64,000 nucleotides of DNA from Cellulophaga sp. 20_2_10 (GTDB lineage: Bacteria; Bacteroidota; Bacteroidia; Flavobacteriales; Flavobacteriaceae): contig NZ_JAMCOJ010000006.1 of NCBI RefSeq assembly GCF_023476645.1, forward strand, positions 62,001 through 126,000, in the 5' to 3' direction. Every line of letters begins with the position of its first letter. Position 1 is the stretch's first letter. Positions 23,949 to 49,918 of the stretch are shown here, one piece after another. The translations under genes were made by a program, and so were the position numbers. The notes below the pieces were generated by a model. The model was not told the DNA's origin, did not search any database, and saw only the letters and a list, made by a program, of their open reading frames with translations.

Positions 23949-24116
23949 ACTATGTGTGTTTTAATGTTTAACAGTTATTACTACCAAAGCACTATTGCAA
24001 TGGCACTGCAAACCTAAAACCGCAACCAAACTTTATACGGTTACAAAGCGCTTACTTTCGGTTGTAACTATTTGTAGTCGTTTAAAAGTGATAAAAAAAA
24101 CAGAATAAATGTACCG
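23949..24116. other. Gap between ssb and the first direct repeat
   Basis: Non-coding, 168 bases. It must hold the ssb promoter and marks the left edge of the island. No convincing TAnnTTTG box or known repeat was identified here; GGTTACAAAG-like and GGTTGTAACT stretches at about 24039-24068 suggest a weak inverted repeat only. Confidence 0.4.
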
Positions 24117-24309
24117 CAGATTTCACCTATTCTAGAGCATAGTATACATAAAATTGGGCCAATTACACATTTCCGTAATTGTGGTACAGAAAATAGTTTT
24201 AAATTGTGAGAAAAATAGAAACCAAACAAACAACTAGAAATGTAAAACGTGCGTTTACATAGCCCTATGGGTGGAATAAACGCAATACATTGCGGTTACT
24301 GACTAGTTA
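24117..24309 (+). repeat. 193-bp direct repeat, left copy (DR1)
   Basis: The same 193 bases recur at 29124-29316 with nine substitutions and no gaps by direct alignment (about 95 percent). Near its right end are two inverted repeats: GCGTTTA (24251-24257) with TAAACGC (24277-24283), and CGCAAT-AC-ATTGCG directly after. It ends about 30 bases before the start codon of the SH3 gene. With DR2 it bounds a 5.0-kb segment that carries the SH3 gene and the OLD nuclease/helicase pair. Confidence 0.95.
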
Positions 24310-24338
24310 AGGGCAATACGAAAAAAACATAACGCACA

Positions 24339-25304
24339 ATGAAACAATTATTTACACTTATATTTTTCTTTACTTTTCTATTCTCATTTGCTCAAACGAA
24401 TTCAAACCACGTTTACGTAAGTGGCTATTATCGAAGTAACGGTACTTATGTAAAAGGTCATTATAGAACAGCGCCAAATAGTACGAATAGAGATAATTTT
24501 TCAACTCGTGGAAACACCAATCCTTACACAAGTCAAGCCGGTTATATAACACCTGACAGTAATACATCTTCGACATATACACAAAGCTCATATTCAAGTC
24601 CAACTTATTCAAGTTCTTCTTATAACAGAACAAATAATTCATCATCTAATACAACCTATTCGACTAATTCGTCAAACAATTCAAATACTACAACAGCAGA
24701 AACGACTACTGTTAATGAAATCTTTGATATTGATGTTTCAAAAATCTATGCGCTACCCAGTAAATATGTTTCAGCACGCAATGCGAATTTGAGATTAGGT
24801 CCAACTACAATAACAAATGTTCTCACTACGATTGAGCGTAATCATAAAATAAGAATAATTGATAATTCAACATATAGTTCTTGGACAAAAATAATTGTTG
24901 AAGTCGATGATGGTTTTTATATCGGATTTTTAAGTAATAGTTTAATTACTGATAATAAAATTAAGGACGATGAACAAGAAAATGGCCCGACTTCGATAGT
25001 AAAAAGTTTCTTGAAACATTTAGGAGATGAAGAATTTTATAGTGCATTTTCATTAACAAATAATCCGAGTTGGAATAAAAATGGTGGCTACAGTTGGTTT
25101 TCGTCAACTGATGCATATGGCGGAATTGATGATGTAACTATCTATGAAGTTAGGCTTGAGAATGCTTATGATGACCAAGCAGTTGTGTTTGCAGATTATT
25201 ATGCAAGCGACCCATTGCACACTTCTCGTCGCTGGAAACAGATTGTGATTTTAGAATATCAATACGGAAAATGGAAAATAGTTCGGACAAAGCTGGCGGA
25301 GTAG
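24339..25304 (+). CDS. Secreted SH3-domain protein with Ser/Thr/Asn-rich region
   Basis: 321 residues with a signal peptide ending SFAQ. Residues 25-60 (VYVSGYYRSNGTYVKGHYRT) match a short motif common in Bacteroidota secreted proteins. Residues about 70-125 are a low-complexity Ser/Thr/Asn/Tyr stretch, probably a flexible linker. An SH3b-like domain follows (YVSARNANLRLGPTTITNVL) and then an unknown C-terminal alpha-beta domain with two Trp-rich strands. It is probably periplasmic or surface-bound and may bind peptidoglycan. First gene of the island, directly behind DR1. Confidence 0.75.
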   Translation: MKQLFTLIFFFTFLFSFAQTNSNHVYVSGYYRSNGTYVKGHYRTAPNSTNRDNFSTRGNTNPYTSQAGYITPDSNTSSTYTQSSYSSPTYSSSSYNRTNNSSSNTTYSTNSSNNSNTTTAETTTVNEIFDIDVSKIYALPSKYVSARNANLRLGPTTITNVLTTIERNHKIRIIDNSTYSSWTKIIVEVDDGFYIGFLSNSLITDNKIKDDEQENGPTSIVKSFLKHLGDEEFYSAFSLTNNPSWNKNGGYSWFSSTDAYGGIDDVTIYEVRLENAYDDQAVVFADYYASDPLHTSRRWKQIVILEYQYGKWKIVRTKLAE

Positions 25305-25310
25305 TACTGC

Positions 25311-25510
25311 CCTAACAACGTATAAAAATAATAGGGTCATAAGTGCTTAACCCAATGGCATAGGCACTTTCACGAGGTCGCCAAATTTTTAAATTTGGCT
25401 TTTGAAAAAAATAAGATAAAAAGAAAAATTTAAAAATTCGGCTCGTGTATAATCCGAAACGATAGCGTCTTTTTACAAGCTACGTTTCATATACGGAGAC
25501 GTTGTGCTTC
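25311..25510 (+). repeat. attC-like junction palindrome, site 1
   Basis: The left arm TAACAACGTATAAAAAT starts at 25313, nine bases after the SH3 stop. The right arm CATATACGGAGACGTTGTGC is at 25488-25507, 33 bases before the next start. ACAACGT pairs perfectly with ACGTTGT and GTATA with TATAC, with a four-base asymmetry on the right side. The middle holds a GCCAAATTT/AAATTTGGC stem. Of the sites in the island this one is the most regular. Confidence 0.6.
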
Positions 25511-25539
25511 ATGCAAAAAAACACTAAAAACGAAATAAA

Positions 25540-27258
25540 TTGATAGTTAAAGAAATCGGAATAAATAATTATAGAAATCTTGATTCATGTTCGATTTATT
25601 TTGAAGATGATTGCAATTTTATAGTTGGAGAAAACAATATTGGAAAGTCTAATTCACTTCGCCTTTTAAATACTTTATTTAATTTCCGTGCTTTTAATTT
25701 TGAGGATTTTACCAACATTAATAATCCTATAGAAATAAAATTAAAATTAAAACTTGCAGAAGTAGAAATTGGACACTTTGAAGACCTTTTCGATATAGAA
25801 GACTCTTCCATTATCAATATAAAATGCATACAACTTTCGCCTGATGACAATTTAGATTTTTATCATTTAGAAACAGACACATACATTTTACCATCTCTTA
25901 TCAAAAATATAAATTATGTTTTTTATGATTCAATAAGAAATCCTATTTCAGAAATATCATTTGATAAAGGAAAGGGAGCCGGTAAATTCCTAGTTTCTTT
26001 AGTAAAGATTTATTTAAATAATAAAGAGCAATCTTCTTCAGATTTTATTGATGAATCAAAATTAACTGACCTACTTGGAGATGTTAACTCAAAAATTAAA
26101 AAAATAAAAGGATTTGAAGAATATGGTATTAATGCTGTAATAGATGAAGATTTAGAAAGACTGCTTCCAAACATGATTGCGCTAAAAGATTTGAATGGCA
26201 ACTTATTGAATAAAAGTGGATATGGAATTCAGTTTTTGATTCTTGTTACTCTTTCTATTTTAGAGAAAATACAATTTATTATTGAAAAAAGAGGTGATAA
26301 AGGAATTTTTGAAAATGAAGAAAATGGTAATAAAGAAATCTCTCTATTAATTGGTTTAGATGAACCAGAGATACATCTTCACCCCTATATGCAGAGGTCA
26401 TTGGTTAAATACTTAAAATCGATAATTAACAATAAAAATCAACAATTTAATGAATTAATCAAAGAACTATTTGGAATTGATAAAATCAATGGGCAAATAA
26501 TTATAGCAACTCATTCGCCAAGTATTCTTCTTAATGATTACAAGCAGATAATAAGGTTTTACGTAGATGAAAATCTTAAAACAAAAGTAATTTCTGGACA
26601 AGAATTAAGCTTATCTGCACAACATTCAAATCATTTATTATTAAGCTTTCCGTTTATTAAAGAAGCTTTTTTTTCAAAAGCCGTTATTTTTGTTGAAGGA
26701 GTATCCGAAGAAGGGAGCTTTGATAATTTTTCAACCAAAATAAATATAAATTTAGATGATTTAGGTATTGGAGTAATTCAATCTCGAGGGGGCAAAATAA
26801 GAACAATAGAAATATTGGTTGAACTTGCTTCAAAATTCATGATTAAAGCTATAGGTATTGGAGATAGAGATAATACTTCATCTGTTAATCATCCAATCTA
26901 TATTACAAATAAGAGAGATTTTGAAGATGAAATAGTTTCTCTATTAGATATTGGAAAAGAAAGTATTTTAAGAGAGTTAGTAATCCAATATGAAAATGAA
27001 AATGCAACAGTTCAATTTACAAAATTGAATAAATGTATTAGAACTTACGCATTAGAAGTTACAGAATATACTCAAAACATAAGACTTTCAGATTTACAGA
27101 ATACAGATTTAACAAACCTTAAACCATTTTATTTAGCTTGGTTCAGTAGTAATAAAGGTTATCCATTAGGTAAATTAATAAGTGAAAAGTTAGACGGTTC
27201 AGAAATACCTTCTATCTATAAAACTGTAATTAATCAAGCCAAAGAACTCTTAAGCTAA
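25540..27258 (+). CDS. Class 2 OLD family ATP-dependent nuclease (GajA-like)
   Basis: 572 residues from a TTG; an in-frame stop lies 15 bases upstream so no other start fits. N-terminal ABC-type ATPase: Walker A G-E-N-N-I-G-K-S near residue 30, Walker B LIGLDEPEIHLHP near 271, and switch histidine IIATHSPS near 321. C-terminal TOPRIM nuclease: V-I-F-V-E-G near 382 and G-D-R-D-N near 440, supplying the metal-binding Glu and Asp residues. Length is close to GajA of the Gabija anti-phage system, where the protein nicks or cuts DNA when nucleotide pools fall. It overlaps the helicase gene by one base, the defining neighbourhood of class 2 OLD proteins. Family sure; defence role inferred from the pair. 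Confidence 0.85.
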   Translation: MIVKEIGINNYRNLDSCSIYFEDDCNFIVGENNIGKSNSLRLLNTLFNFRAFNFEDFTNINNPIEIKLKLKLAEVEIGHFEDLFDIEDSSIINIKCIQLSPDDNLDFYHLETDTYILPSLIKNINYVFYDSIRNPISEISFDKGKGAGKFLVSLVKIYLNNKEQSSSDFIDESKLTDLLGDVNSKIKKIKGFEEYGINAVIDEDLERLLPNMIALKDLNGNLLNKSGYGIQFLILVTLSILEKIQFIIEKRGDKGIFENEENGNKEISLLIGLDEPEIHLHPYMQRSLVKYLKSIINNKNQQFNELIKELFGIDKINGQIIIATHSPSILLNDYKQIIRFYVDENLKTKVISGQELSLSAQHSNHLLLSFPFIKEAFFSKAVIFVEGVSEEGSFDNFSTKININLDDLGIGVIQSRGGKIRTIEILVELASKFMIKAIGIGDRDNTSSVNHPIYITNKRDFEDEIVSLLDIGKESILRELVIQYENENATVQFTKLNKCIRTYALEVTEYTQNIRLSDLQNTDLTNLKPFYLAWFSSNKGYPLGKLISEKLDGSEIPSIYKTVINQAKELLS

Positions 27259-29069
27259 TGGATAGTTCTTTAGAAATAATAAAAAGCGAAATTGAAAAAC
27301 GTCATCAAGGTGACGTTAAACAATTAGCTGTAGTCTTCGATACAAACAATCGACTTTTGGTAGAAGCCCCAGCTGGTTACGGAAAAACCAATACAATGGT
27401 TAGTAAAATAGCTTACATGTTAGCTACAAATGAAATCCCATATCCTAAAAGACTGCTAGCTTTAACTTTTAGTGTAAATGCTGCGTATAAAATAAAAAAA
27501 GATGTAAGTCTGAAAGTTCCAGAATTACTAAAGGATTCGAATTTAAATATTAAAATATCAGATAAAATATTTGTATCAAACTATCATGGGTTTTGTAGGA
27601 GAATATTAAAAAAATACGGCTATTTACTTCATTCTAATCTACTGAATATAGACAACTTACAATCTATTGATGATAGCAAGCCTCGAAATACAATGCGAGA
27701 TGTAACTGGATTGAGTTACGAAAACGCTATGTTTCTTTCTGAGTACAACACTTCTTTGAAAGAACTCAAATATGACTTCGTAAAAGATAATATTATTAAA
27801 TATAATCAAATTATAATTGATGAATTAATTTCAAGAGAAGTTATCCCTTATAATGCAATTTTGACACTTACAATTAAACTTTTTAATGATTATCCAAAAA
27901 TATTGAGTTTCTATCAAAATTTTTTTACTTCAATATTAGTTGATGAATATCAAGATACAAATACATTAAGTTATTGGATATTAAACAAACTAATTACCGA
28001 AAAAACTAATGTTCTATTGCTTGGAGATTCACTACAAAGGATTTATGGATTTATTGGAGCGATACCTAACCTTTTAAATCTTTCAGCTGAAAAATTTAAT
28101 CTTCAAAAAATAGAACTCGATAAAAATTATAGGTTTGCACAAAACCCAAGTATGCTTTTGTTAGATAAGAACATTAGAAGCAATGCAGAAAATCCAAAGA
28201 ATCCTCAAATCTTAGAAGAAGCGAATATTGAATTTGAAATTCTTGAAGACCAAAATGAGGAGTCTCTTTATGTTATAAACAAGGCGATAAAATTAATAAG
28301 AGAAGACCCAGAAGCAAAAGTAGCAATATTAGTAAAGCAGAGAGGGGCTAATATTACTAGAATAATTGATACTTTTAATCTTAATAATGTTCCCTTTTTT
28401 TATGGTTTATATTCAGACGAAGACCCAATCTACACTAAATTTCATAGAACTTGTTTATTTGAATTTATTGAGATTTTAAAAGTAAATAATCGTGTTTCAA
28501 AAAAAATGGGGAAATCTCACCAATTGAAAATCAAATCTTTGTATGAGGAGAATAATTCACCATTAATAGAAGCTATATCGAATTTATTGAGTCTTTTTTG
28601 GGAAAGAATATTTATTGACTTTGCTTTTGTTAGTAACGAAGAAAAAATAATTTTAGTTAAAGATACTTTTGAAAATTATGGACTTAAACAATATGTGGAA
28701 TTTGTGAATTCTAGTATAATTATTTCTACAGTTCATGGAGCAAAAGGTCTTGAGTGGGATTATGTTATTATCCCTGATATGGAGAAAGATTCATTTCCAA
28801 ATTTTTGGGGATTATGTAATGGATGCTCTAGCAATTCAGATTGTATTTTAGAAATTAAAGACGAAAATGAATCTAAATTTCTTGAAGAGCTCAGTGTTTT
28901 TTATGTTGCCGTGACAAGAGGAAGAAAACAAGTGTATTTTTCTGCAAGTAAGAAGCAACTTGATAATAGTGGAAATTATCGAGTAAAAAACAGTAGTTGT
29001 TTTATGAATTTAAAAGGAATAAATAAAAGCACGAAAGCACAACAAAGTACTGTGGTAAAAAACAAGTAA
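27258..29069 (+). CDS. UvrD/Rep-type superfamily 1 helicase (GajB-like)
   Basis: 603 residues; the ATG overlaps the stop of the OLD gene by one base (TAATG), so translation is coupled. Helicase motifs in order: Walker A V-E-A-P-A-G-Y-G-K-T near 35, motif II ILVDEYQDTN near 227, motif III GDSLQRIYGF near 256, motif V STVHGAKGLEWD near 490, and motif VI VAVTRGRKQVYFS near 549. Three cysteines in CNGCSSNSDC near 520 could bind metal. It is longer than the roughly 500-residue GajB I recall, so this may be a divergent Gabija subtype. GajB is thought to activate the nuclease or sense DNA ends. Confidence 0.83.
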   Translation: MDSSLEIIKSEIEKRHQGDVKQLAVVFDTNNRLLVEAPAGYGKTNTMVSKIAYMLATNEIPYPKRLLALTFSVNAAYKIKKDVSLKVPELLKDSNLNIKISDKIFVSNYHGFCRRILKKYGYLLHSNLLNIDNLQSIDDSKPRNTMRDVTGLSYENAMFLSEYNTSLKELKYDFVKDNIIKYNQIIIDELISREVIPYNAILTLTIKLFNDYPKILSFYQNFFTSILVDEYQDTNTLSYWILNKLITEKTNVLLLGDSLQRIYGFIGAIPNLLNLSAEKFNLQKIELDKNYRFAQNPSMLLLDKNIRSNAENPKNPQILEEANIEFEILEDQNEESLYVINKAIKLIREDPEAKVAILVKQRGANITRIIDTFNLNNVPFFYGLYSDEDPIYTKFHRTCLFEFIEILKVNNRVSKKMGKSHQLKIKSLYEENNSPLIEAISNLLSLFWERIFIDFAFVSNEEKIILVKDTFENYGLKQYVEFVNSSIIISTVHGAKGLEWDYVIIPDMEKDSFPNFWGLCNGCSSNSDCILEIKDENESKFLEELSVFYVAVTRGRKQVYFSASKKQLDNSGNYRVKNSSCFMNLKGINKSTKAQQSTVVKNK

Positions 29070-29123
29070 AAACTCATTAATTTTCAGCTAAAATACTTCT
29101 GTAAGAACCATCTATTAACACCA

Positions 29124-29316
29124 CAGATTTCACCTATTCTAGAGCATAGTATACATAAAATTAGGTCAATTACACATTTCCGTAATTGTGGTACAGAAAA
29201 TAGTTTTAAATTGTGAGAAAAATAGCAACCAAACAAACAACTAGAATTGTAAAGCTTGCGTTTACACAGCCCTATAGGCGGAATAAACGCAATACATTGC
29301 GGTTACTGACTAGTTA
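29124..29316 (+). repeat. 193-bp direct repeat, right copy (DR2)
   Basis: Partner of the repeat at 24117-24309. It keeps both inverted repeats (GCGTTTA 29258-29264 with TAAACGC 29284-29290, then the CGCAAT/ATTGCG pair). It ends 20 bases before the next start codon. The gap of 54 bases from the helicase stop (29070-29123) holds nothing recognisable. Confidence 0.95.
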
Positions 29317-29336
29317 CCAGCAATAAAAAATAAATA

Positions 29337-30326
29337 ATGAGCTCAGAAAGAAATGATTTAAATAGACAGCTTCGAGAAAAAAAAGTTGAAGTAAGTAGAC
29401 TAGAATCTAAGATATCTGACCTTACTGAATTAACCGCACAAAGAGACAGTATTCTTACTGAAGTTGGTACTTTGAATGAATCAAAAGTAGAACTTGAAGA
29501 ATTCATTGCTACAAATAATACCCAAAAGCAAACATTAACAACTGAAATCGGAACCTTAACAGGACAAAAGACAGAGCTTGACACATACATTCAAACTAAT
29601 ACACCTACAAAAGAAACCCTTACTAATGACCTTGTTACATTACAAACTCAGAAAGCTAATTTGGAAGGTGAAATTGAAGAATTAGAATCAAACAAATCAA
29701 ATACTGAATCGGAAATTGATAAAATAAATCACGAAAAAAGCAAACTGGATGATTTAATAATTGAATTGAGAGACAAATTCGGATTGTATTCAAAAGATAT
29801 GCGAGATATGTCTTTAGATTCAATCACCCAACTAAAAAAATATTCTTGGTCAGCGGTGGCTGCAATAATAGGAGCTGTAGCATTAATGATTATTCTACTC
29901 TGTATCCTAACAACATCTAATCCATTTTCTGAAAAGCTTTTAAAATTTTTCTACCACGAACCCAACTTAAGATTCTATTCAATTTTAACCATCCGGATAT
30001 CAATATCAGCGGCATTTATTTTTTTAATAATAATCTTTCTAAATCTAGCGAGAGGTTTTGTATCTCAATATATTAAAGCCAGAAATCGTCTGACAGCATT
30101 ACGGGTTACTGATTTTCTAATTGGTCGTATTCAAAGCAAGAAAAATACAGTAACTACGGATGAAGATAAACTGAAAGTAGAAATTGAACGAATAAAAGAG
30201 CAAGTAACTCTTTTAAACACCCATATTCCAAAAATAATGGATTTGGGGAATTCTTCATTTGACAAGGATAGTAAAACCAAAGATCCTATTGAACAATTGA
30301 AAAAAATGAAAGAAATATTAAAATAA
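29337..30326 (+). CDS. Coiled-coil membrane protein of unknown function
   Basis: 329 residues. Residues 1-150 are a long coiled coil built of degenerate repeats of about 28 residues (L-T-x-E-I-G-T-L-x-x-Q-K). Two transmembrane helices follow at about 175-200 (AAIIGAVALMIILLCIL) and 225-250 (AAFIFLIIIFLNLA), then a second shorter coiled coil. No catalytic motif is seen and no family is recognised. It sits directly behind DR2 next to the OLD/helicase pair, so a link to defence is conceivable, but the repeat and its own junction suggest an independent unit. Confidence 0.65.
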   Translation: MSSERNDLNRQLREKKVEVSRLESKISDLTELTAQRDSILTEVGTLNESKVELEEFIATNNTQKQTLTTEIGTLTGQKTELDTYIQTNTPTKETLTNDLVTLQTQKANLEGEIEELESNKSNTESEIDKINHEKSKLDDLIIELRDKFGLYSKDMRDMSLDSITQLKKYSWSAVAAIIGAVALMIILLCILTTSNPFSEKLLKFFYHEPNLRFYSILTIRISISAAFIFLIIIFLNLARGFVSQYIKARNRLTALRVTDFLIGRIQSKKNTVTTDEDKLKVEIERIKEQVTLLNTHIPKIMDLGNSSFDKDSKTKDPIEQLKKMKEILK

Positions 30327-30334
30327 AAAGCTGG

Positions 30335-30556
30335 TAACAGTGTATATAGCAAATAGGGCGTTCGGTGGTTTACGAAAGTTCATTGCTATTTACCAATACC
30401 GCCAAATCGTTGATTTGGCTTTTAACAATGAATAAATTAAAAACAAAATACAACGTTTTGGCTCAGTGCAAACTTGAAAGGATATTGCTTTCTTCTGCCC
30501 TACTTGCCATATACTAAAAATTGTGCACAAACTACCAAAAACCAACCTTGGCATTA
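30335..30556 (+). repeat. attC-like junction palindrome, site 2
   Basis: The left arm TAACAGTGTATATAGC starts at 30335, eight bases after the stop. Bases 30342-30358 (GTATATAGCAAATAGGG) pair with 30498-30514 (CCCTACTTGCCATATAC) at 15 of 17 positions. Both mismatches are A opposite C on this strand and become T.G wobbles on the other, so the bottom strand folds better. The loop holds the conserved CGCCAAATCGTTGATTTGGC stem, and CCTTGGCATT lies at about 30546-30555. Confidence 0.6.
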
Positions 30557-30597
30557 AAATTGATTTCTATTCAAAATTAACTTAAAAACATAATATT

Positions 30598-30981
30598 ATG
30601 AAAAAAGCAACATTATTATTAGCACTTTTATTTATTACAAATTTTGGCTTTTCTCAAAATAAAGATAAAATTGGTCAGGAATTATTAGATGTTCCTATGG
30701 GAGAAATGACTAGAAACATAAAAAACCCCGAAAAGAACCCTTTAATTGACCAAATTAGCGAACTTGAATTTGAATATCTGGATCTAAAAGCGAATGAAAT
30801 TCAGAATAGTTTTGCGAAGCAAGATTTGTCTAAAATGAAAACAAAGGAGGAAGTTTATAAAGCGTATATCGCTTACTTGAAAAAGAAAATTACGGAAGTA
30901 AAACCAGTAATGCAAAAAGCGAAACAAGAGAAGAAAGAAAAAGTCGAAAGAAAGATAAATATGCAAATTAAAAAACAATAA
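30598..30981 (+). CDS. Small secreted protein, unknown function
   Basis: 127 residues. A signal peptide (MKKATLLLALLFITNFGFSQ) is followed by a helical, very Lys/Glu-rich mature chain of about 107 residues that ends in a basic tail. No cysteine or recognised domain. It is a single-gene unit between two attC-like junctions. Likely periplasmic. The high charge and helicity are all that can be said. Confidence 0.6.
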   Translation: MKKATLLLALLFITNFGFSQNKDKIGQELLDVPMGEMTRNIKNPEKNPLIDQISELEFEYLDLKANEIQNSFAKQDLSKMKTKEEVYKAYIAYLKKKITEVKPVMQKAKQEKKEKVERKINMQIKKQ

Positions 30982-30991
30982 AGTCAGTGCA

Positions 30992-31140
30992 TAACACCTT
31001 ATGTAATTAATTGCTTGCTTGTTGCCTACTTACGATTCCCAAAGCGTAGGAACTAACAGAATTTCTATCTGGGATTTATTTGCTAAATTAGGTGCTTACA
31101 CGCGTAACAAACCATATACAAGAATATTGGCAGTAATTAA
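30992..31140 (+). repeat. attC-like junction palindrome, site 3
   Basis: The left arm TAACACCTTATGTAATTAA starts at 30992, ten bases after the stop. The right arm CATATACAAGAATATTGGCA at 31113-31132 ends 12 bases before the next ATG. The middle carries the block GCCTACTTACGATTCCCAAA followed by GCGTAGGAACTAACAG, shared with sites 4, 6, 8 and 9. Confidence 0.55.
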
Positions 31141-31144
31141 AAAA

Positions 31145-31708
31145 ATGAGGAACTACATACAAACATTTAATATTTTAACCGAAAAAGAAATTGACCTTTT
31201 TGAAAGTAAGGTTCAGGTTAAAAAATTAAAAAAAGGCGATTTTTTTATCAAAGAAAATAGAGTATCTAAAGAAGTAGCATTTGTGGTTTCTGGCTTGTTT
31301 AGGTCATTCTATTATTCGTCATCTGAAGAGGAAGTTACTTATTGTTTTACCTTTTCAAATTCATTTGTTAGCGCCTACTCTTCTTTTTTATCTCAGACAG
31401 AAACAATAGAAAACATACAAGCATTAACAGATATAGAGTTATTAACTATATCTAGAGAAGAAATATTAGTTTTAGAGAAATCTAGTACAAATTGGCTTAA
31501 ATTTTTCAAATTAATTACTGAACAAGAATACATTAAAATGGAAAAAAGAGTTTTCTTGTTGCAAAAAGAATCCGCAGAAAAAAAATACAAAGATTTACTT
31601 CTACATCAACCTGAATATTTACAATCTATTCCTTTAAATTACCTGTCTTCTTATTTAGGAATTACCCAAAGACATTTAAGTAGAATAAGAAAAACGATTA
31701 CGAATTAG
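31145..31708 (+). CDS. Crp/Fnr family transcriptional regulator
   Basis: 187 residues from the ATG at 31145. The frame is open 42 codons further up, but that part lies inside the junction palindrome and has no family similarity. It has a cyclic-nucleotide-binding-like beta barrel (VKKLKKGDFFIKENRVSKEV, FVVSGLFRSFYY) and a C-terminal helix-turn-helix (LNYLSSYLGITQRHLSRIRK). The phosphate-cassette residues for cAMP are not conserved, as usual for the Bacteroidota branch. The next gene starts 60 bases on and is the likely target. This is one of the few two-gene units in the island. Confidence 0.85.
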   Translation: MRNYIQTFNILTEKEIDLFESKVQVKKLKKGDFFIKENRVSKEVAFVVSGLFRSFYYSSSEEEVTYCFTFSNSFVSAYSSFLSQTETIENIQALTDIELLTISREEILVLEKSSTNWLKFFKLITEQEYIKMEKRVFLLQKESAEKKYKDLLLHQPEYLQSIPLNYLSSYLGITQRHLSRIRKTITN

Positions 31709-31768
31709 ACAAATGTCCTTTTAGAAAAGTGCCCAAGTATTGTTCTTTGCTATAAACAAAGAGCAAAT

Positions 31769-32347
31769 ATGAAACAAGTATTAATAATAAACGGGCATCC
31801 AGACAAAGAGAGTTTTAATTACGCATTATCGGAAGCTTACATAAAAGGAGCTGATAAAACAAATTCTATAATTTCTTTAATTAACATTGCAGAATTAGAT
31901 TTTAATCCTAATCTACAATTTGGCTACCGAAAACGTATGGAACTGGAGCCTGATTTGGTTAAAGCCATCGAGAAAATAAAAAAGGCAGACCATATTGTTT
32001 GGGTATTTCCTATGTGGTGGTATGGTTACCCTGCACTTATGAAAGGATTTATAGACAGAACATTTTTACCGTCAATTACATATCAACCAATTGAGGGAAA
32101 AGCATTACCTGAAAAACTACTGAAAGGAAAATCTGCACGTTTAATTATTACAGCAGATACACCAAAATGGTATGATTTTCTAATAATGAAAAGCCCAACC
32201 ATAAACCAATTTAAAAATGGAACATTAAAATTTTGCGGAATAAGTCCTGTAAAAACAACTTATATTGCCTCAATAAAAAATTCAACTTTAGGTTTTAGAG
32301 AAAAGTGGTTAAAAAAAGTAATACTACTAGGTGAAAATCTGAAATAA
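31769..32347 (+). CDS. NAD(P)H-dependent oxidoreductase, flavodoxin-like fold
   Basis: 192 residues, ATG start. It begins KQVLIINGHPDKESFNYAL (FMN phosphate loop) and contains the family signature VWVFPMWWYGYPALMKGFID near residue 75, as in KefF, MdaB and YwrO quinone/nitro reductases. It probably reduces quinones or electrophilic nitro compounds with FMN in the cytosol. It is controlled, by position, by the Crp/Fnr gene 60 bases upstream, a pairing often seen for quinone- or stress-responsive reductases in Bacteroidota. Confidence 0.87.
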   Translation: MKQVLIINGHPDKESFNYALSEAYIKGADKTNSIISLINIAELDFNPNLQFGYRKRMELEPDLVKAIEKIKKADHIVWVFPMWWYGYPALMKGFIDRTFLPSITYQPIEGKALPEKLLKGKSARLIITADTPKWYDFLIMKSPTINQFKNGTLKFCGISPVKTTYIASIKNSTLGFREKWLKKVILLGENLK

Positions 32348-32354
32348 CTACTGT

Positions 32355-32497
32355 TAATAACGTTTATAATCTACTGTTGGTCCTCATCTGCCTAAGAACA
32401 CCAAAGCGTAGGAACTAACAGATTTTCTATTAGGTTTTTATTTACTAAATTAGGTGCTTAAACACGGAACAAGCCAGATACAACAACCTTGTAATGT
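32355..32497 (+). repeat. attC-like junction palindrome, site 4
   Basis: The left arm TAATAACGTTTATAATCTA is at 32355, seven bases after the stop. The right arm GATACAACAACCTTGTAAT ends about 15 bases before the next ATG. The middle AAAGCGTAGGAACTAACAGA and ACTAAATTAGGTGCTTA are near-copies of site 3. Confidence 0.5.
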
Positions 32498-32509
32498 ATT
32501 TAACAAAAA

Positions 32510-32902
32510 ATGAAATATAAGATACATTTAGTTTTAAGCATACTACTTCTTTTAGTTTTAGGCTGTGGAAACAGAAAAACAAAAATCCTAGATTATTATT
32601 ACATCTATGATTATGTTGATTTCGATAATAATAGAAACCGAATCGATGGGAAAAATGTTTTGATGTGCAATCCTGCTTTCAAAAACGACCCATTTATAAA
32701 GGATTTGCAATATGTTGAATGGAATGAATCCGTAATAATTGCTACAACAAATGATGGCCATTTTATTATCGAAGCCAATTCAAATGGCCTTTGTTGTGGA
32801 TGTGGAAATGAAACAAAAGGACCATTAACATCTAATGAATTGGACATCTTTAAAATCAAAAATAATTTCCATTATATTGAAAAAATAAAGATAAATCAGT
32901 AA
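32510..32902 (+). CDS. Small lipoprotein, unknown function
   Basis: 130 residues with a lipobox (LLLLVLGCGN). The mature part is a short alpha-beta domain with SNGLCCGCGNE near residue 100, where the three clustered cysteines could bind metal or form disulfides. No family is recognised. The single-gene unit lies between sites 4 and 5. Lipid-anchored in the envelope by prediction. Confidence 0.6.
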   Translation: MKYKIHLVLSILLLLVLGCGNRKTKILDYYYIYDYVDFDNNRNRIDGKNVLMCNPAFKNDPFIKDLQYVEWNESVIIATTNDGHFIIEANSNGLCCGCGNETKGPLTSNELDIFKIKNNFHYIEKIKINQ

Positions 32903-32910
32903 TCTATGCT

Positions 32911-33050
32911 GCGTATAAAACGCATTACAGCAAAACCTATAATTAATACGGGTTTTAGTACTAAACCAAAAGTTTAGTGCTTTAAACTAAGTCCGTTAAA
33001 TTTTTATCCCGAATTTTGGAGGTAGTTTTGCACAATAAAAAATAAAGCAA
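32911..33050 (+). repeat. attC-like junction palindrome, site 5 (degenerate)
   Basis: GCGTATAAAACGC at 32911-32923 lies eight bases after the stop and resembles the left-arm core. A central TTAAATTTTTATCCCGAA block resembles the CCAAATTTTTATGCCGAA block of sites 7, 10 and 11. No convincing right arm was found before the next gene, so this site is decayed or partial. Confidence 0.35.
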
Positions 33051-33140
33051 AACATTAAGCTTTAGCTTCATGCTCAGACAGAAACGAAAAGTTTCCTTGT
33101 CTCAGTACTACTCATAGCTTAAACGTCACCATACATACAA

Positions 33141-33875
33141 ATGAACATTTTCGGATTTAACAAAAAACAGGAATATTCATCAAAGGATATTTTAAAACAA
33201 CTTGACAAATGTGCGGAAGATTATACATTTCCGATGCTTGACAATGGATATGTTTATCCTGTCCATTCTAAATTGAGTGTTTATCGAGATGAAAAACGTT
33301 GGACTTTAATAATTGAAGTTATCGGATTTAATTATCGTGGTGGCGGACACAATGGAATAAGTAATTGTTTGCACGTATTTGGAAATTGTATTGACACAAA
33401 ACCAGGAACTGATAATGCAAATTTTCTTTACTTAACTGATAACAGTTCTGACTTCCCAACTTTCGATGAAGAATATGAAGAGAGTTTGAACCCAAAAGCA
33501 GAATCTATGATATTGCGAAATAAAGAAATCGCTATTAATCATAATCGAGAATTTTACATAAAAAAAGAAATTAAATTAGAAGAAGCGGACAAAATTTTCG
33601 TTTGGGAATTTTTGAGAGGTTTAGAACCAGAATACAATAAAGAGTTTGAGGCAACTGAAAAAGAAATCAGAGAACGAATTCCAACGGACTTGCCAAAGAT
33701 TATGGAATTGACGAAATGGAATCATCCTGACTGTGCTGATTCTGAAATCCCAAGTAAAAACGAAACATTTAGACAAATAGCAAAGGTTCTAGAAACTGGA
33801 AAAACAGAATTTTACAAACCGAATAAACAGCCAAATAATCATTGGAAAAACTGGCCAGATGGAGGAACATTATAA
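33141..33875 (+). CDS. Conserved hypothetical protein, possibly DUF7003-like
   Basis: 244 residues, ATG start, no signal peptide or membrane helix, so cytosolic. The N-terminal half is a beta-rich domain (GYVYPVHSKLSVYRDEKRWT, EVIGFNYRGGGHNGISNCLH). The C-terminal half is acidic and helical with PTDLPKIMELTKWNHPDCAD and ends in NNHWKNWPDGGTL. I associate this pattern tentatively with the uncharacterised DUF7003 family of Bacteroidota. No catalytic residues can be named. It is a single-gene unit between junctions. Confidence 0.6.
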   Translation: MNIFGFNKKQEYSSKDILKQLDKCAEDYTFPMLDNGYVYPVHSKLSVYRDEKRWTLIIEVIGFNYRGGGHNGISNCLHVFGNCIDTKPGTDNANFLYLTDNSSDFPTFDEEYEESLNPKAESMILRNKEIAINHNREFYIKKEIKLEEADKIFVWEFLRGLEPEYNKEFEATEKEIRERIPTDLPKIMELTKWNHPDCADSEIPSKNETFRQIAKVLETGKTEFYKPNKQPNNHWKNWPDGGTL

Positions 33876-33889
33876 AAAAGTACGTATGG

Positions 33890-34017
33890 TAACACCGTAT
33901 ATAATTTATTGCTTGGTCCTCGCCTACTTACGAATCTTAAAGCGTAGGGCCTAACGGACTTTCTATTCGGTTTTAATGTGAACCACCCAACAGACCAGAT
34001 ACAAGAACCTTGGCAGC
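33890..34017 (+). repeat. attC-like junction palindrome, site 6
   Basis: The left arm TAACACCGTATATAATTTA starts at 33890, fourteen bases after the stop. The right arm CAGATACAAGAACCTTGGCA is at 33996-34015. The loop block TTGCTTGGTCCTCGCCTACT is identical at site 8. Confidence 0.6.
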
Positions 34018-34028
34018 GATTAGCGTTA

Positions 34029-34166
34029 CAAAACAGAAGAAGAAGATCTATAAAACAACTAACATTTTTTGATGTTGAATATGACTTAAAAACTAACGAA
34101 TATAGGTTGGTTGTACCATTAGACTTAAATAATTCTAATATTTGGAGTATTAGAAATTTCTACTAA
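34029..34166 (+). pseudogene. Recurrent reading-frame remnant, copy A
   Basis: About 131 bases here recur at 36085 and 42200. Only this copy is open, encoding NRRRRSIKQLTFFDVEYDLK and then VVPLDLNNSNIWSIRN; the open frame reaches back to a GTG at 33978 inside site 6, so it lacks a credible start. It looks like the 3' end of a gene whose front has been lost, kept as a dead unit right behind a junction. Confidence 0.5.
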
Positions 34167-34236
34167 AGGAAATGGACTGAATAAATCTATGTTTTAAACT
34201 TGACCTTGAATATACAGCTAACACCCTAAAAAAATA

Positions 34237-35052
34237 ATGAAGAAAATAATTTGTTTTTTAATATTGACCATACTTTTTAGTTGTAAAACTGAAAACAAAA
34301 AAGAGAAAGAGAATCAAGACGTAATCGAAAATAAACAAGATTGGATATTTATTGAAAATCTGAAAAACAGAAAAAAAATAGATGTAACTGAACTAAAATT
34401 AATAAAAAGTAATATTATTTCAGATGAAATAAAAGGAATTATATCAAATGATTCTGTTCAAATACTAGAATATAGAAAAGTAGGAAGTGACGAATACCAA
34501 GAAGAAAACTGCTCTGTTATAGATTATAGAACCAATACAGATCTTAAATCAGTGATGCGTTCTTATACGTTGTCTTATCTAGACAATGAAATAGAAAATG
34601 GGGAATATGTTTACAAACATGATATAAAGAATAAAGCCGAAAACACATACAAATTATTAGAGAATACCTATTTTAGAATTAGTTCTTACAAGGATACTCC
34701 TATTGTTGCTTCTGGAGGTATTTATTATCCCATTTATTTAAATAATAACTCCATAACTTTTACATATATGGATGGTATTGATGTAAATTATTTTTCTAAA
34801 ATTGAAAAAACAAAAAATGAAACTTTTATGTATCATTTAGACGAAAACAAGTTTTATGAAATAAAAATTCTTGACAACAACTCTATGCTTCAAATCTGGA
34901 AAGACCAAGATAATTCTTATACCCTTTTGGCGCCACTAAAAACTGTTTTAAAATTACCTTTATTAGAAACAATATACACAGAAATGGACTATTCTTTTGA
35001 AGGATTTGACACGATAAATTTAGAAAAAATATTTAATTCAGATACAAACTAG
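34237..35052 (+). CDS. Lipoprotein, unknown function
   Basis: 271 residues. The signal peptide ends ILFSCKTEN, a lipobox. The mature chain is polar with alternating beta-strand segments and several Asn/Lys/Glu runs; a single extra cysteine occurs in EENCSVIDY. No family is recognised. The start codon follows the copy-A remnant by 70 bases, in which a TATACAGCTAACACCC motif again recalls a junction arm. Envelope location is inferred from the lipobox. Confidence 0.6.
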   Translation: MKKIICFLILTILFSCKTENKKEKENQDVIENKQDWIFIENLKNRKKIDVTELKLIKSNIISDEIKGIISNDSVQILEYRKVGSDEYQEENCSVIDYRTNTDLKSVMRSYTLSYLDNEIENGEYVYKHDIKNKAENTYKLLENTYFRISSYKDTPIVASGGIYYPIYLNNNSITFTYMDGIDVNYFSKIEKTKNETFMYHLDENKFYEIKILDNNSMLQIWKDQDNSYTLLAPLKTVLKLPLLETIYTEMDYSFEGFDTINLEKIFNSDTN

Positions 35053-35124
35053 AAAGCTTATCGCTTATCTGACCCCTACTAAGCATAGCCTAAGCATTAG
35101 CACTAATATAAACAACATTAACTA

Positions 35125-35886
35125 ATGAACGAAAATTTGAAAACAGCGTATATTTTATCAAGTAGAAAAAGAAGAATAGCAGCGTTTATAATTGATCATT
35201 TTACATTTACATTTCTGATAGTAGGAATTGTATTCTTGTCACTTGGAACAGGTTTTATGGACGAAAGTAATTTCATTAACCTACTAACCAAAATGTTGCC
35301 ACCAATAATTATTGGCCTTCTACTCTATTTTGCAAAAGATGCAATAAAAGGAATTAGTCCTGGAAAATGGGTTATGGGAATTATGGTTAGAAATGAAAAT
35401 AACCCGACTGAAGCTCCTTCTTTTGTTAAGTTGTTTATCCGAAATTTATTTTTAATAATTTGGCCAATAGAATTTATAGTTCTTAGTTCGAGTCCCGAGA
35501 AAAAAAGATTTGGAGATAAAACTGCAAAAGCAATTGTAGTTAAGAATCCGAATAAACCGAAAAAACTTCCGAGAATTTTAGCATTAGTTGGTATAGGAAT
35601 TGCCTTTTTTACATTTACTTTCTTGTTTGCTGGTTCTGCGATGAAAAGCTCTGATGCTTATAAAGTAGCAATATCGAAAATTGAACAAAATGAAGAAATA
35701 GTAACAGAAATTGGCGGTATCAAAAAGTACGGAATGATGCCAACTGGAAGTGTTTCTATATCAAATGGATATGGAGAAGCACAATTGGAAATAAAAGTTA
35801 TTGGAAATGATAAGGATTTGAATGTTGCTGTTTATCTAACAAAAGAACCACAAGGAGAATGGAAATTGATAGAACTGAACAAATAA
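35125..35886 (+). CDS. RDD family membrane protein fused to a Coa1-like domain
   Basis: 253 residues. The N-terminal RDD domain (RKRRIAAFIIDHFTFTFLIV with its Arg/Asp signature, helices at about 15-40 and 50-68, and GISPGKWVMGI) is followed by a third and fourth helix near 110 and 155. The C-terminal 90 residues form a cytochrome c oxidase assembly factor 1 (Coa1/Tim21-like) domain: SSDAYKVAISKIEQNEEIVT, then beta strands with GxGEAQLEIKV. Such fusions occur in Bacteroidota; the role is unknown and oxidase assembly should not be assumed. Only 72 bases separate it from the preceding lipoprotein, with no full palindrome between. Confidence 0.75.
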   Translation: MNENLKTAYILSSRKRRIAAFIIDHFTFTFLIVGIVFLSLGTGFMDESNFINLLTKMLPPIIIGLLLYFAKDAIKGISPGKWVMGIMVRNENNPTEAPSFVKLFIRNLFLIIWPIEFIVLSSSPEKKRFGDKTAKAIVVKNPNKPKKLPRILALVGIGIAFFTFTFLFAGSAMKSSDAYKVAISKIEQNEEIVTEIGGIKKYGMMPTGSVSISNGYGEAQLEIKVIGNDKDLNVAVYLTKEPQGEWKLIELNK

Positions 35887-35896
35887 ACACTATTGT

Positions 35897-36280
35897 TTAC
35901 ACCGTATAAAAATAATTACGGTTTAGTGCTTTTAACAACATCCGCCAAATTTTTATGCCAAATCGTTGGGAGGCTTTTAGAATAGAAAAAACTATTTATA
36001 TTTAACTAAGTAATAAACCGAAGCGAAAGTGCTTATCACCTGCCTTGCGTGTCTTACACTAACCGCAGACAGTAATTAGTTCTACAAAACAGAAGAAGAT
36101 CTATAAAACAACTAACATTTTTTTGATTTTGAATATGAATTAAAAACTAACGAATATAAGTTGGTGGTACCATTAGACTTAAATATTTCTAATATTTGGA
36201 GTATTAGAAATTTGACTGGTGCTAAACCCATAAACTTAGCTACTTTTTACACGCTACGTTTTATACACAAGACCGTTAGC
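35897..36280 (+). repeat. attC-like junction palindrome, site 7, with nested remnant
   Basis: The left arm TTACACCGTATAAAAATAA starts at 35897, ten bases after the stop. The right arm TTATACACAAGACCGTTAGC is at 36261-36280, 12 bases before the next ATG. A CCGCCAAATTTTTATGCC stem block follows the left arm. A second right-arm-like TTACACTAACCGCAGACAG near 36051 precedes a 129-base remnant, so two units appear nested here. Confidence 0.55.
36085..36213 (+). pseudogene. Recurrent reading-frame remnant, copy B
   Basis: Near-copy of 34029-34159. A T-run of seven instead of six shifts the frame and meets stop codons at once, so nothing is encoded. It is preceded by CAGTAATTAGTTCTAC, matching the base context of copies A and C. 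Confidence 0.55.
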
Positions 36281-36292
36281 AAACATTAAAAA

Positions 36293-37369
36293 ATGAATAG
36301 AAGAATAGTATTTATATTTATTTTAGTTGGAATATGCACCTTATTTCAGTGTACTCTAAATGAAAATAAAAAAGATAAAATTGGTGTCTTTGGTCATCTA
36401 CAAGATGATTTAGGAAACCCCTTGGGCAACGTATCTATTTCCTATAAGAGCAATTTAACTTCTGTACAAACAGATACCTTAGGGAATTATACAATAGATA
36501 CCCCAAGAACAGTTTTTATAGAGTTTAAAAAAGAAGGGTATCAAACAATAGCCACTAAAATTGATAATTTCTCAGAAGTAGGTTCTTATAATCTAAAAAC
36601 AGTGGTACTAAAAAAAACCAATTCTACAGAAGTTAAAGAAAAAGACCTTTACCATACTCCAAAACCTAAACAAAAAAGTTTAAAATTGTCTGGTAACGTA
36701 CTAACTATTTTTAATGAGCCCATAAAAAATACAAAAGTTACTTTAATGGATAGTACCCAACACAGTACAACCTCGGAAACACAAGAATACAATAGAGGTT
36801 TTTTCTCTTTTAGAAAATACAATCACGAGCTTTTATTCCAGAAAAAGGGATTTAGAGCCTTAAAAATAAGCCTATATACCTATAAAGAAAATAATCCGAA
36901 AATAAAATTGTTAGAAAAATCAAATAGAAAAGGAGTAGCTGTAATTAAATCTGGGAACTATATTTCTTTACCCAAAACTAACCTTTTACAGAAATCTGAA
37001 AGTAAAGAAACTACTTACTTATTGGTATTTGCAGGTCGTTCTACAACAACCGATTTTTTCTACCCAAACAACAAACATCAATTTAAAATAGAGAAAGATA
37101 CCTTAATTCGTTTTGCGATTTTTAATGAAGGCAATACCAAGCTGTGTAAAGTAATAGACACGAGCAATTATTTATGTACAGTAAAACATAAATATGGATC
37201 TAGTTTTACAAAAGGAAATTTTGTAGAAGAAAAGGTGATTTACCCTTCAGAATTATGCATAGATTGTTATGATGAGCCTTCAATTGTAGAATTAAAATTG
37301 GATACAATTGGTGGTAATTATGTATTTGCAAATACAAAGAATAAAAAAGGATATTATTTTACATATTAA
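36293..37369 (+). CDS. Lipoprotein with carboxypeptidase-like regulatory domains
   Basis: 358 residues. The signal peptide ends CTLFQCTLNE (lipobox Q-C is atypical; F-Q-C). Two CarboxypepD_reg-like beta sandwiches follow: about 30-105 (GVFGHLQDDLGNPLGNVSIS, TDTLGNYTI) and about 125-205 (LSGNVLTIFNEPIKNTKVTL). The C-terminal 150 residues are not recognised and contain a C-x-x-C-Y motif (ELCIDCYDE) near 324. Probably surface-exposed. Single-gene unit. Confidence 0.65.
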   Translation: MNRRIVFIFILVGICTLFQCTLNENKKDKIGVFGHLQDDLGNPLGNVSISYKSNLTSVQTDTLGNYTIDTPRTVFIEFKKEGYQTIATKIDNFSEVGSYNLKTVVLKKTNSTEVKEKDLYHTPKPKQKSLKLSGNVLTIFNEPIKNTKVTLMDSTQHSTTSETQEYNRGFFSFRKYNHELLFQKKGFRALKISLYTYKENNPKIKLLEKSNRKGVAVIKSGNYISLPKTNLLQKSESKETTYLLVFAGRSTTTDFFYPNNKHQFKIEKDTLIRFAIFNEGNTKLCKVIDTSNYLCTVKHKYGSSFTKGNFVEEKVIYPSELCIDCYDEPSIVELKLDTIGGNYVFANTKNKKGYYFTY

Positions 37370-37466
37370 TTAAGAGAAAATTATAGAAAGAATAACATTT
37401 ATTAAGTAAGGTGCTTAAAAACCCAAACTTTGCTAGATAAATACGCTCCCTTTAATAAATTAGAAA

Positions 37467-37973
37467 ATGACCTTAAGAATAATCATCACCCTTCTTTTTA
37501 CTGTTTTTTCATCTACACTAGTTGCGCAAGCAAGTTGGGGTTATTCAGTAAAGTTTAAGCTAATATCTAAAGAGAATGATACTATTTCTATTGATCATTT
37601 TAAAAGTGGAAAAATAAAATTATTAAGTGCTCCATTTGGATCTCATTCAAATAATAAACTAGAATTTGATTACTCTAGCAACTCCTTCATTTTTAGCCAA
37701 CACACTATTGCTACAGGTTCAATTTTGGTTTTCGAAACTTTAAAGGACAAGACAATACTTAACGTACAAACGATCAATTTAGACCTAAAAACTATAAAAC
37801 TAACAGGAAAAAATTATTCTATTCACGTGTGGAATAATGAAGAAAAATTTATCAAAATTGAAGAAAAAGATACGTATTGGAAATTGAAACACCCATTTGA
37901 AACTTATTTTGAAAACAACAAAAAATTTATTCCTAAAAACTTAGACGTGTTAGTTGAAGTTAAAATAAAATAA
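37467..37973 (+). CDS. Secreted protein, unknown function
   Basis: 168 residues. The signal peptide MTLRIIITLLFTVFSSTLVA is followed by a beta-rich mature chain (WGYSVKFKLISKENDTISID) with no cysteine and no recognised family. It lies 97 bases after the preceding gene without a clear palindrome, so the two could share a transcript. Periplasmic or exported by prediction only. Confidence 0.6.
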   Translation: MTLRIIITLLFTVFSSTLVAQASWGYSVKFKLISKENDTISIDHFKSGKIKLLSAPFGSHSNNKLEFDYSSNSFIFSQHTIATGSILVFETLKDKTILNVQTINLDLKTIKLTGKNYSIHVWNNEEKFIKIEEKDTYWKLKHPFETYFENNKKFIPKNLDVLVEVKIK

Positions 37974-38665
37974 CTATTGCCAATAAGGTCTAAAACAATA
38001 AGGATTAAGTGGCCAAGCAAAAGTTAGTGCAGAGTAACAAAGTCTCCCAAACCTATTTAGCTTGGTGTTTAAACCAGAGAAATAAAAAGGTAAAACAAAA
38101 GTTTTGACTGCGAGCCTAATCGCAAACTTTTGATATGCTAAACATTGTAATCAATAGCTAAAAAAAAAAAAAACAATCCTCAGGCAACGATTTCAAAATT
38201 TCTTACGTCTACATAATTAGTAGTAAATAACTAATATTTGCTCGTTACTACAAACCAATAAATAAAAACTAATTATGAAATTAAAAATTGTTTTAAGCAT
38301 TTATGGCAATAATACTGATATTTTAAAGCTGTTCAGTTTAAAATATTGACACAGTAGTAAAGCGAGAGAAGGTGTTACAAAAAGATTTTAAAACTACCAT
38401 TCTATTTACATATGTTAATGGTGTATGGTTTTAGAAGCCGAAATTCAAGATAAAGACTATAGTTTTTTTTAGGCACAGGTCATTAGATCTAATTGACCAA
38501 AGAATTAGCAACCTAACTCAAAAGTGAAGTAATAGGCAAAATACAAGAGGTTTGACGTGTCTCTATACCTGCATAAATAGTTTGTATTCTGATCAACTTC
38601 CGATATATATAATGTTACCAGTAATTTAACTAAGAATTAATTAAAATTTTAATAGTACCCTACAA
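37974..38665 (+). other. 692-bp gap with a degenerate junction and a dead small frame
   Basis: The first 200 bases hold a worn junction (GGTCTAAAACAATAAGG and a CCCAAACCTATTTAGCTTGG block). A 14-base A-run lies at 38160-38173. ATG 38275 opens MKLKIVLSIYGNNTDILK but stops after 24 codons, and further short coding-like stretches in shifting frames reach about 38600. This looks like a decayed lipoprotein-type gene. No intact gene was found. Confidence 0.4.
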
Positions 38666-41062: not shown

Positions 41063-41092
41063 AGAACTAAAGGAAACACTTGGTATAATTTG

Positions 41093-41136
41093 AAAAATAT
41101 TTGTGGATAGTACTAGTACTATCCACAAATATTTTT
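41093..41136. repeat. Perfect 44-bp palindrome
   Basis: Bases 41093-41114 (AAAAATATTTGTGGATAG, TACT) are exactly complementary to 41115-41136, centred on CTAG with no loop. It overlaps the start and signal-peptide codons of the SH3 gene and could act as a cruciform, a terminator for the upstream gene, or a translation-blocking hairpin. Confidence 0.97.
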
Positions 41137-42187: not shown

Positions 42188-42199
42188 TAATTAGTTTAA

Positions 42200-49911: not shown

Positions 49912-49918
49912 AAAACCA

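What the first reader, a model, noticed from the sequence alone, without database searches (positions are those of the whole stretch)
24117..29316. Gabija-like defence pair on a 5-kb segment bounded by 193-bp direct repeats
A class 2 OLD nuclease (ATPase plus TOPRIM) overlaps by one base a UvrD-type helicase, the arrangement of Gabija (GajAB). The pair and an SH3 gene lie between two 95-percent-identical 193-bp repeats exactly 5007 bases apart. Recombination between the repeats would excise the segment as a circle or duplicate it, making defence a gain/loss module.
Basis: partly seen in the sequence, partly recalled or inferred. Interest (0 to 1): 0.75.

Follow-up and report, generated by a model that had tools for sequence, protein, structure and literature searches.

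The report
Gabija inside a Bacteroidota integron-like array
The anti-phage gene pair is one unit in a long row of swappable gene cassettes built like an integron, but the linked recombinase lacks the part that defines known integron recombinases, so this kind of gene-capture system in Bacteroidota bacteria may have been overlooked.

Summary
Observation confirmed: full-length GajA and GajB overlap by one base and lie, with an SH3-like gene, between two repeats (184/193 identical, 5007 bp apart). The interpretation changes. The repeat ('R1') has 29 matches in this genome and is no Gabija border. An attC-like element separates SH3 from GajAB, in a 26-kb same-strand array between ssb and dnaE. In other arrays of this genome, cassettes begin GTTRN6A and their downstream elements begin with the complement, with one fixed wobble position; the window's own array is decayed and has no strict pair. 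In five genomes of the genus the same R1 sits beside ssb, followed by mostly different cassettes; in a sixth, one gene separates ssb and dnaE. R1 ends like the site directly after a tyrosine recombinase gene; both occur in the same 5 of 18 genomes. Related Bacteroidota recombinases lack the ~42-residue IntI additional domain and have strict cassettes downstream (50 pairs versus 0 upstream, same strand, 80 loci). Best reading: GajAB was captured by an integron-type system with a non-canonical integrase; it has no attC of its own and ends at the second R1. Recombination and defence are inferred, not shown. New variant of a known kind.

The parts
24113..24308 (+). R1 copy 1: possible promoter plus attI-like 3' end (..ACTA|GTT), first element of the array beside ssb
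   Evidence: same place in 5 genomes
24306..25304 (+). cassette 1: starts GTTAAGGGCAATA (24306); gene 24339-25304, SH3_3-like (sub-threshold)
25304..25513 (+). attC-like site 1: R'' ..CTGCCCTAAC (AAC 25314-25316), by eye complementary to the cassette 1 start with one inserted base; R' GTTGTGC at 25501
   Evidence: pairing by eye, at chance level in the scored tests
25501..29312 (+). GajAB unit: starts GTTGTGCTTCATG (25501), ends at the GTT of R1 copy 2; no attC of its own found
25540..27258 (+). gajA: AAA ATPase + OLD-like TOPRIM, 572 aa
27258..29069 (+). gajB: UvrD-type helicase, 603 aa
29120..29315 (+). R1 copy 2: 3' boundary of the GajAB unit and leader of the next cassette
29313..30338 (+). 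cassette: start GTTACCAGCAATA, gene 29337-30326 (coiled-coil, probably membrane), own R'' AAAGCTGGTAAC at 30327-30338 (not a strict pair)
30326..30532 (+). attC-like site; R' reads ATT instead of GTT (30520)
30520..30995 (+). cassette: start ATTGTGCACAAAC, gene 30598-30981, R'' GTCAGTGCATAAC (pairing by eye)
30983..31138 (+). attC-like site (30 matches of this element in the genome)
31126..32361 (+). cassette: start ATTGGCAGTAATT; cNMP-binding (Crp-like) gene with probable ATG at 31145, and flavodoxin-fold gene; degenerate R'' at 32346-32361
32346..32500 (+). attC-like site, degenerate
33125..33893 (+). cassette: start GTCACCATACATAC, gene 33141-33875 (DUF7003), R'' GTACGTATGGTAAC (pairing by eye)
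33878..34005 (+). attC-like site
24113..50000 (+). whole array, between a gene recognised as ssb (23613-23948, minus) and one recognised as dnaE (50764-55203, minus)
   Evidence: the two names are recognised by me, from no call

Best explanation
GajAB is cargo of a chromosomal integron-type array. Cassettes begin with G|TTRN6A and end in a foldable attC-like site whose R'' arm is complementary to that cassette's own start. A XerA-like tyrosine recombinase encoded elsewhere in the genome (297 aa, G000:C6) probably joins folded, bottom-strand attC sites to R1, an attI-like site preceded by a possible promoter, so that new cassettes enter next to R1 and are read from it. The recombinase lacks the additional domain of known integron integrases. 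The SH3 and GajAB units are the R1-proximal ones in this strain. The GajAB unit has lost, or never had, its own attC and now ends at a second R1, so it could leave only with R1 as an end (attC x R1, 3.8 kb; or R1 x R1, 5.0 kb). GajAB presumably defends against phage as known Gabija does. Shown: sequence anatomy, complementarity in the genome's other arrays, synteny, turnover, co-occurrence. Inferred: recombinase action on these sites, circles, expression, defence.
For: (1) In 18 of 19 aligned R1 rows (by eye; ACTAGTT exactly in 12) a GTT stands where the copies diverge into different gene leaders. (2) Own start/end complementarity: 14 of 177 array genes score >=11 against 0.2% of 2643 permuted pairings and 0 of 75 control genes. 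Under a stricter rule, base 11 is A at the start and G in the reverse-complemented end in 29 of 30 own pairs (no pair on the opposite strand), 22 of 25 in congeners, 50 of 54 in named loci (opposite strand 3 of 10). (3) 41 complete sites from such pairs have complementary inner arms (19.6 against 9.9 permuted). (4) ssb-R1-variable genes-dnaE in 5 genomes; G012 has one gene there. Shared genes lie away from R1: 6 of 53 in proximal and 24 of 54 in distal halves, p=2e-4. (5) R1 and the P0002-type recombinase occur in the same 5 of 18 genomes; in all 5 the R1 3' end follows the recombinase stop. (6) In 80 named loci, 50 strict same-strand pairs lie downstream and 0 upstream of the recombinase; 14 loci have one within 260 nt. 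(7) The window's elements are relatives of those in the other arrays.
Against: No recombination product, circle or strain pair was seen. The window's own array contains none of the 29 strict pairs; its best pair (29313) scores 9, a score 11.8% of permuted pairings reach, and the others are at chance level in scored tests and rest on inspection. Most array genes show no intact pair. GajAB has no partner end: the two one-mismatch hits elsewhere lie in unrelated sequence. Bottom-strand folding is better in 37 of 41 circle-form and 33 of 41 integrated sites, but the sites were chosen with the base-11 wobble that favours this strand. The recombinase lacks the domain that PMC9668308 calls necessary for integron recombination (passages). 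Co-occurrence in 5 genomes may be shared descent. Only 21 of 80 named loci held a strict pair. Some genes in the arrays point the other way. Why R1 is dispersed is not explained.
Confidence: 0.75

Rival explanations
1. One reading: the 5-kb segment is lost, circularised or duplicated by homologous recombination between the two R1 copies; no site-specific system is needed.
For: Two direct repeats, 184 of 193 identical; R1 copies abundant; the window array shows no strict cassette pair.
Against: Does not explain the attC-like elements between genes, the start/end complementarity in the sister arrays, the sharp GTT edge of R1 or turnover behind a fixed R1 in congeners.
Confidence: 0.13
2. R1 is only a repeated promoter or intergenic repeat, and the array is ordinary accessory DNA with dispersed repeats.
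For: 14 of 19 R1 copies hold TTG-N17-20-TAnnTTG against 35 of 950 shuffles (the pattern was framed after seeing R1 and the copies are related), near the Bacteroidota promoter consensus (recalled); R1 usually directly precedes a gene in the same direction.
Against: The 3' end of R1 alone recurs behind the recombinase gene in 5 of 5 genomes, and cassette starts after R1 obey the same GTTRN6A rule as those after attC.
Confidence: 0.08
3. A CALIN-like relic: cassettes were assembled by a canonical IntI elsewhere or in the past, and the resident recombinase is unrelated to them.
For: The window array is decayed; R..H spacing shows the resident enzyme is not IntI.
Against: The strict signature was found in 21 loci with the short recombinase, downstream of it, and in 0 of 11 true-IntI loci on either strand (82 kb). 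Of the 7 PF00589 matches of this genome the 4 scanned are none of them above the IntI cut-off; 3 were not examined.
Confidence: 0.1

Closest known systems
Chromosomal (sedentary) integron
   Same: Recombinase gene next to an insertion site, same-strand cassettes, each closed by a foldable attC with R and L boxes; joint at G|TT; large arrays; defence genes among the cargo.
   Different: Recombinase lacks the ~42-residue additional domain and points the same way as the cassettes; cassette ends carry a fixed A/G wobble at base 11; R1 (possible promoter plus attI-like end) is present in many copies and leads arrays far from the recombinase.
Gabija (GajAB)
   Same: GajA ATPase+TOPRIM and GajB UvrD-like helicase, adjacent, one-base overlap, catalytic motifs present.
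   Different: No defence tested; no solved-structure sequence match for GajA at E<=0.001; carried in a cassette array.
XerA / archaeal Xer recombinases
   Same: Closest solved structures to P0002 by sequence (4a8e 1.7e-36) and by fold (4a8e Z 23.1, rmsd 8.7 over 257; IntI4 2a3v Z 17.9, rmsd 6.5 over 254); no IntI insertion.
   Different: Gene lies at the head of a cassette array; the genome also has enzymes that match XerD and XerC best.
CALIN (clusters of attC lacking an integrase)
   Same: The window array itself has no recombinase beside it.
   Different: A recombinase followed by the same R1 3' end lies elsewhere in the genome.

Membership tests
Gabija | GajA: ATPase plus TOPRIM, full length | tested here: met
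   PDLC00085 3.5e-191 over 1-570; Pfam AAA_15 and OLD-like_TOPRIM
Gabija | GajB: UvrD-like helicase directly downstream | tested here: met
   PDLC00107 1.2e-219; one-base overlap
Gabija | protects against phage | not testable with these tools
   no experiment
[quoted passage not shown]
   for arrays of this genome and relatives; in the window by homologous elements and inspection only
Integron | cassette start complementary to its own attC R'' arm | tested here: inconclusive
   met in other arrays; 0 strict pairs in the window array, none for GajAB
Integron | recombinase gene with adjacent attI-like site followed by cassettes | tested here: met
   (elsewhere in the genome and in relatives, not in the window)
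Integron (canonical) | integrase carries the IntI additional domain | tested here: not met
   GLR..HxLRH spacing 91 against 133 aa in true IntI; gap against IntI4 2a3v; TIGR02249 205.7 bits under its cut-off of 265, two stretches
Integron | recombinase joins attI and attC | not testable with these tools
   no experiment
XerA/XerC/XerD-type equivalogs | P0002 scores above the curated cut-off | tested here: not met
   NF040815 208.6 against 220; XerD 170.7 against 329.6; XerC 166 against 335.15. The second enzyme, P0001, does pass NF040815 (238.8).

The most novel reading that the evidence does not exclude
Bacteroidota carry a widespread, overlooked class of integrons whose XerA-like integrase works on folded attC sites without the additional domain held to be essential; in one clade the attI site, fused to a promoter, has itself become a dispersed element (R1) that seeds expressed cassette arrays in many chromosomal places and can serve as a cassette's end, as for Gabija.
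Probability: 0.45. Interest if true: 0.88.

Novelty: new variant of a known kind. Interest (0 to 1): 0.75.

Why it matters
Surveys select integrases by the IntI domain (PMC9668308 and PMC2426708, passages). IntegronFinder 2.0 reports for Bacteroidetes integrase-only elements earlier and one complete integron, in Salinibacter (PMC9024848, passages); two further papers merely list Bacteroidota among phyla with integrons (PMC8618304, PMC9668308, passages). If the enzymes described here recombine attC sites without that domain, the accepted requirement is not general, and Bacteroidota arrays that hold Gabija-, PARIS- and Mokosh-like genes are an uncounted store of defence cassettes. The claim is directly testable with small reporter cassettes.

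Tried and rejected
No tRNA in the window. No Rfam family at gathering score in 23900-50700. No GajA relative in viral contigs, none at 1e-80 in 298 other family genomes, no GajB at 1e-60 in 197 relatives; the best listed plasmid GajA match has 31% identity. A first complementarity test by plain local alignment gave a weaker excess (>=22: 25 of 196 own against 4.0% permuted; control 3 of 53 against 5.0%) and was replaced by the anchored test, whose means differ little (7.93 against 7.48) and whose excess lies in the high scores. One search's looser pair list holds chance pairs, among them both window entries, which lie outside the array. Automatic inverted-repeat calls behind recombinases include chance hits and are not counted. 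The 80 named loci are the best 80 of 577, and only same-strand pairs were counted as up- or downstream; three opposite-strand pairs lie in L173 and L181. Two of the 50 pairs share an end with another (48 distinct ends). The tree took 57 of the 80; my pattern mislabelled L140 (short, called IntI) and L199 (IntI, called short); support for the Bacteroidota-type group is modest (84). No paper on this arrangement was found in 10 searches, which cover open-licence PMC papers only; papers were seen as search listings, and as passages for PMC9024848, PMC2426708, PMC8618304 and PMC9668308. Messier and Roy 2001 was seen only as a citation.
Full report
Observation. The two repeats, the spacing of 5007 and the Gabija pair are present as described. 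GajA and GajB match PADLOC models over nearly their full length (3.5e-191 and 1.2e-219). The SH3 call is below the Pfam cut-off.

The repeat is not a Gabija border. Searching the own genome (4.17 Mb, 58 contigs) gives 29 matches of R1, 15 of the element after the SH3 gene and 30 of a third element at 30985-31160. They cluster on the same islands; within each fetched island the matched elements point one way, mostly that of the neighbouring genes, with some genes reversed. Several short contigs consist largely of such DNA. Aligned R1 copies share up to about 150 bp; in 18 of 19 rows (by eye) a GTT stands at the point where they diverge into different gene leaders, with ACTAGTT exactly in 12.

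Cassette logic. In the sister arrays a minority of genes begin with GTTRN6A and are followed by an element that begins with the reverse complement of that start. In an anchored test 14 of 177 array genes score >=11 against 0.2% of 2643 permuted pairings; of 75 control genes none does. Under a stricter rule that ignored base 11, base 11 proved to be A at the start and G in the reverse-complemented end in 29 of 30 pairs in own loci, with no pair on the opposite strand; 22 of 25 in congeners; 50 of 54 in named loci against 3 of 10 on the opposite strand. That mismatch is a G.T wobble on the bottom strand and C.A on the top. Forty-one sites with both ends known have complementary inner arms (19.6 against 9.9 permuted). 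The bottom strand folds better in 37 of 41 circle-form and 33 of 41 integrated sites, though the choice of sites with this wobble favours that result. This is attC architecture as I know it.

The window array is weaker. It holds none of the 29 strict pairs. The cassette at 29313 pairs with its own end at score 9, which 11.8% of permuted pairings reach. The pairings of the SH3 cassette (24306, with one inserted base) and of those at 30520 and 33125 rest on inspection. That the window belongs to the same kind of array rests on R1, on its elements being relatives of those in the other arrays and on synteny. The GajAB unit starts properly at 25501, but no matching end lies near it; two one-mismatch hits elsewhere in the genome lie in unrelated sequence. 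Its right boundary is R1 copy 2.

Turnover. In five genomes of the genus (G000, G004, G005, G006, G008) the order is ssb, R1, an array with 16-32 same-strand genes, dnaE. No first gene is shared. GajAB occurs at this place only in G000, and GajB has no match at 1e-60 in the other 17 genomes of the genus. Genes shared at >=60% lie mostly away from R1: 6 of 53 in the proximal halves and 24 of 54 in the distal halves (p=2e-4); G008 is an exception, with 3 of its 5 shared genes in the proximal half. In G012, which has no R1 match, one gene separates ssb and dnaE. This is the pattern expected if cassettes enter at R1.

Recombinase. The genome has two recombinases near a family that NCBI names 'site-specific tyrosine recombinase/integron integrase' (NF040815, cut-off 220: P0001 238.8, P0002 208.6). 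P0002-type enzymes (82% or more; G008 broken by stops, in two pieces of 75 and 82%; G006 with an intact and a split copy) occur in exactly the five genomes with solid R1 matches among 18 (G016 has one weak 29-nt R1 match). In all five the R1 3' end follows within about 30 nt of the recombinase stop, and then a cassette-like start. The other 13 genomes have enzymes 37-51% identical at best; in 11 of them I see by eye an inverted repeat and a GTT after the stop. P0001 has its own such site and a first cassette with perfect ends (L044:6064-7700).

Not a canonical IntI. P0002 aligns with IntI4 (2a3v) in two pieces with a 43-residue shortfall between them. The spacing from the catalytic GLR to HxLRH is about 91 residues in the Bacteroidota enzymes and 133 in true IntI. 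In a tree of 63 rows true IntI form a supported group (11 rows, SH-aLRT 100) apart from the Bacteroidota-type enzymes (36 rows, 84). The best fold matches are archaeal Xer (Z 23.1, rmsd 8.7, 257 aligned) and XerA (Z 20.6, rmsd 14.7, 243 aligned), with IntI4 at rank 5 (Z 17.9, rmsd 6.5, 254 aligned) (model pLDDT 75.8).

Wider occurrence. Among 80 named loci, the best of 577 found with the recombinase alignment, 21 hold at least one strict pair. All 50 same-strand pairs (48 distinct ends) lie downstream of the recombinase and none upstream (293 kb against 368 kb); in 14 loci the first starts within 260 nt. They include Arundinibacter, Winogradskyella, Seonamhaeicola, Algibacter, Algoriphagus, Rufibacter and Bacteroidales MAGs. 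Eleven true-IntI loci (82 kb) show none on either strand.

Mechanism. I think it most likely that the resident recombinase inserts folded bottom-strand cassettes at R1 or attI-like sites and that R1 supplies a promoter: 14 of 19 copies hold TTG-N17-20-TAnnTTG against 35 of 950 shuffles (consensus recalled, pattern framed after seeing R1, copies related). GajAB then sits in a favoured, R1-proximal place. Because it ends at R1, it should be able to leave only with R1 as an end, as a 3.8-kb (attC x R1) or 5.0-kb (R1 x R1) circle.

Known and new. Gabija is known, and defence genes in integrons are known to me from recall and from listings. The IntegronFinder 2.0 paper reports for Bacteroidetes integrase-only elements earlier and one complete integron in Salinibacter (PMC9024848, passages), and that method requires the IntI-specific domain (PMC9668308, passages). 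Ten searches of the held library found no account of this arrangement (calls listed under Tried and rejected); preprints and subscription papers were not searched.

Noticed in passing
L044:6064-7700 (G000:C1:876064-877700): First cassette behind the second recombinase has perfect ends and encodes an AriAB-like protein (PARIS; system name recalled), PDLC02982 1.4e-140.
   Followed up: partly
L045:3815-9217 (G000:C1): Behind another R1 lie a ThsA-like gene (2.5e-17) and a MkoC-like gene (Mokosh; name recalled; 4e-295).
   Followed up: partly
41 attC-like sites: The AAC-to-GTT spacing, sought from 45 to 330 nt, is stepped: 57 (2), 114-124 (20), 179-196 (19), none between; steps of about 64 nt, i.e. 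about 32 bp of folded stem. Unexplained.
   Followed up: no
L048:2299-2715 and L044:4369-4770: Both recombinase genes have a small divergent gene with a cysteine-rich start beside them; no Pfam or NCBIfam match at 0.001.
   Followed up: no
G008:C1:1345000-1400000 (L117-L119): One stretch holds 9 R1 copies, some of which by eye replace the right end of an attC-like site, while that genome's P0002-type gene is broken by stops.
   Followed up: partly
array genes of the own genome (118 scanned): Pfam matches include beta-lactamase fold (2 members), erythromycin esterase (1) and MutS domain V (1); function not examined.
   Followed up: no
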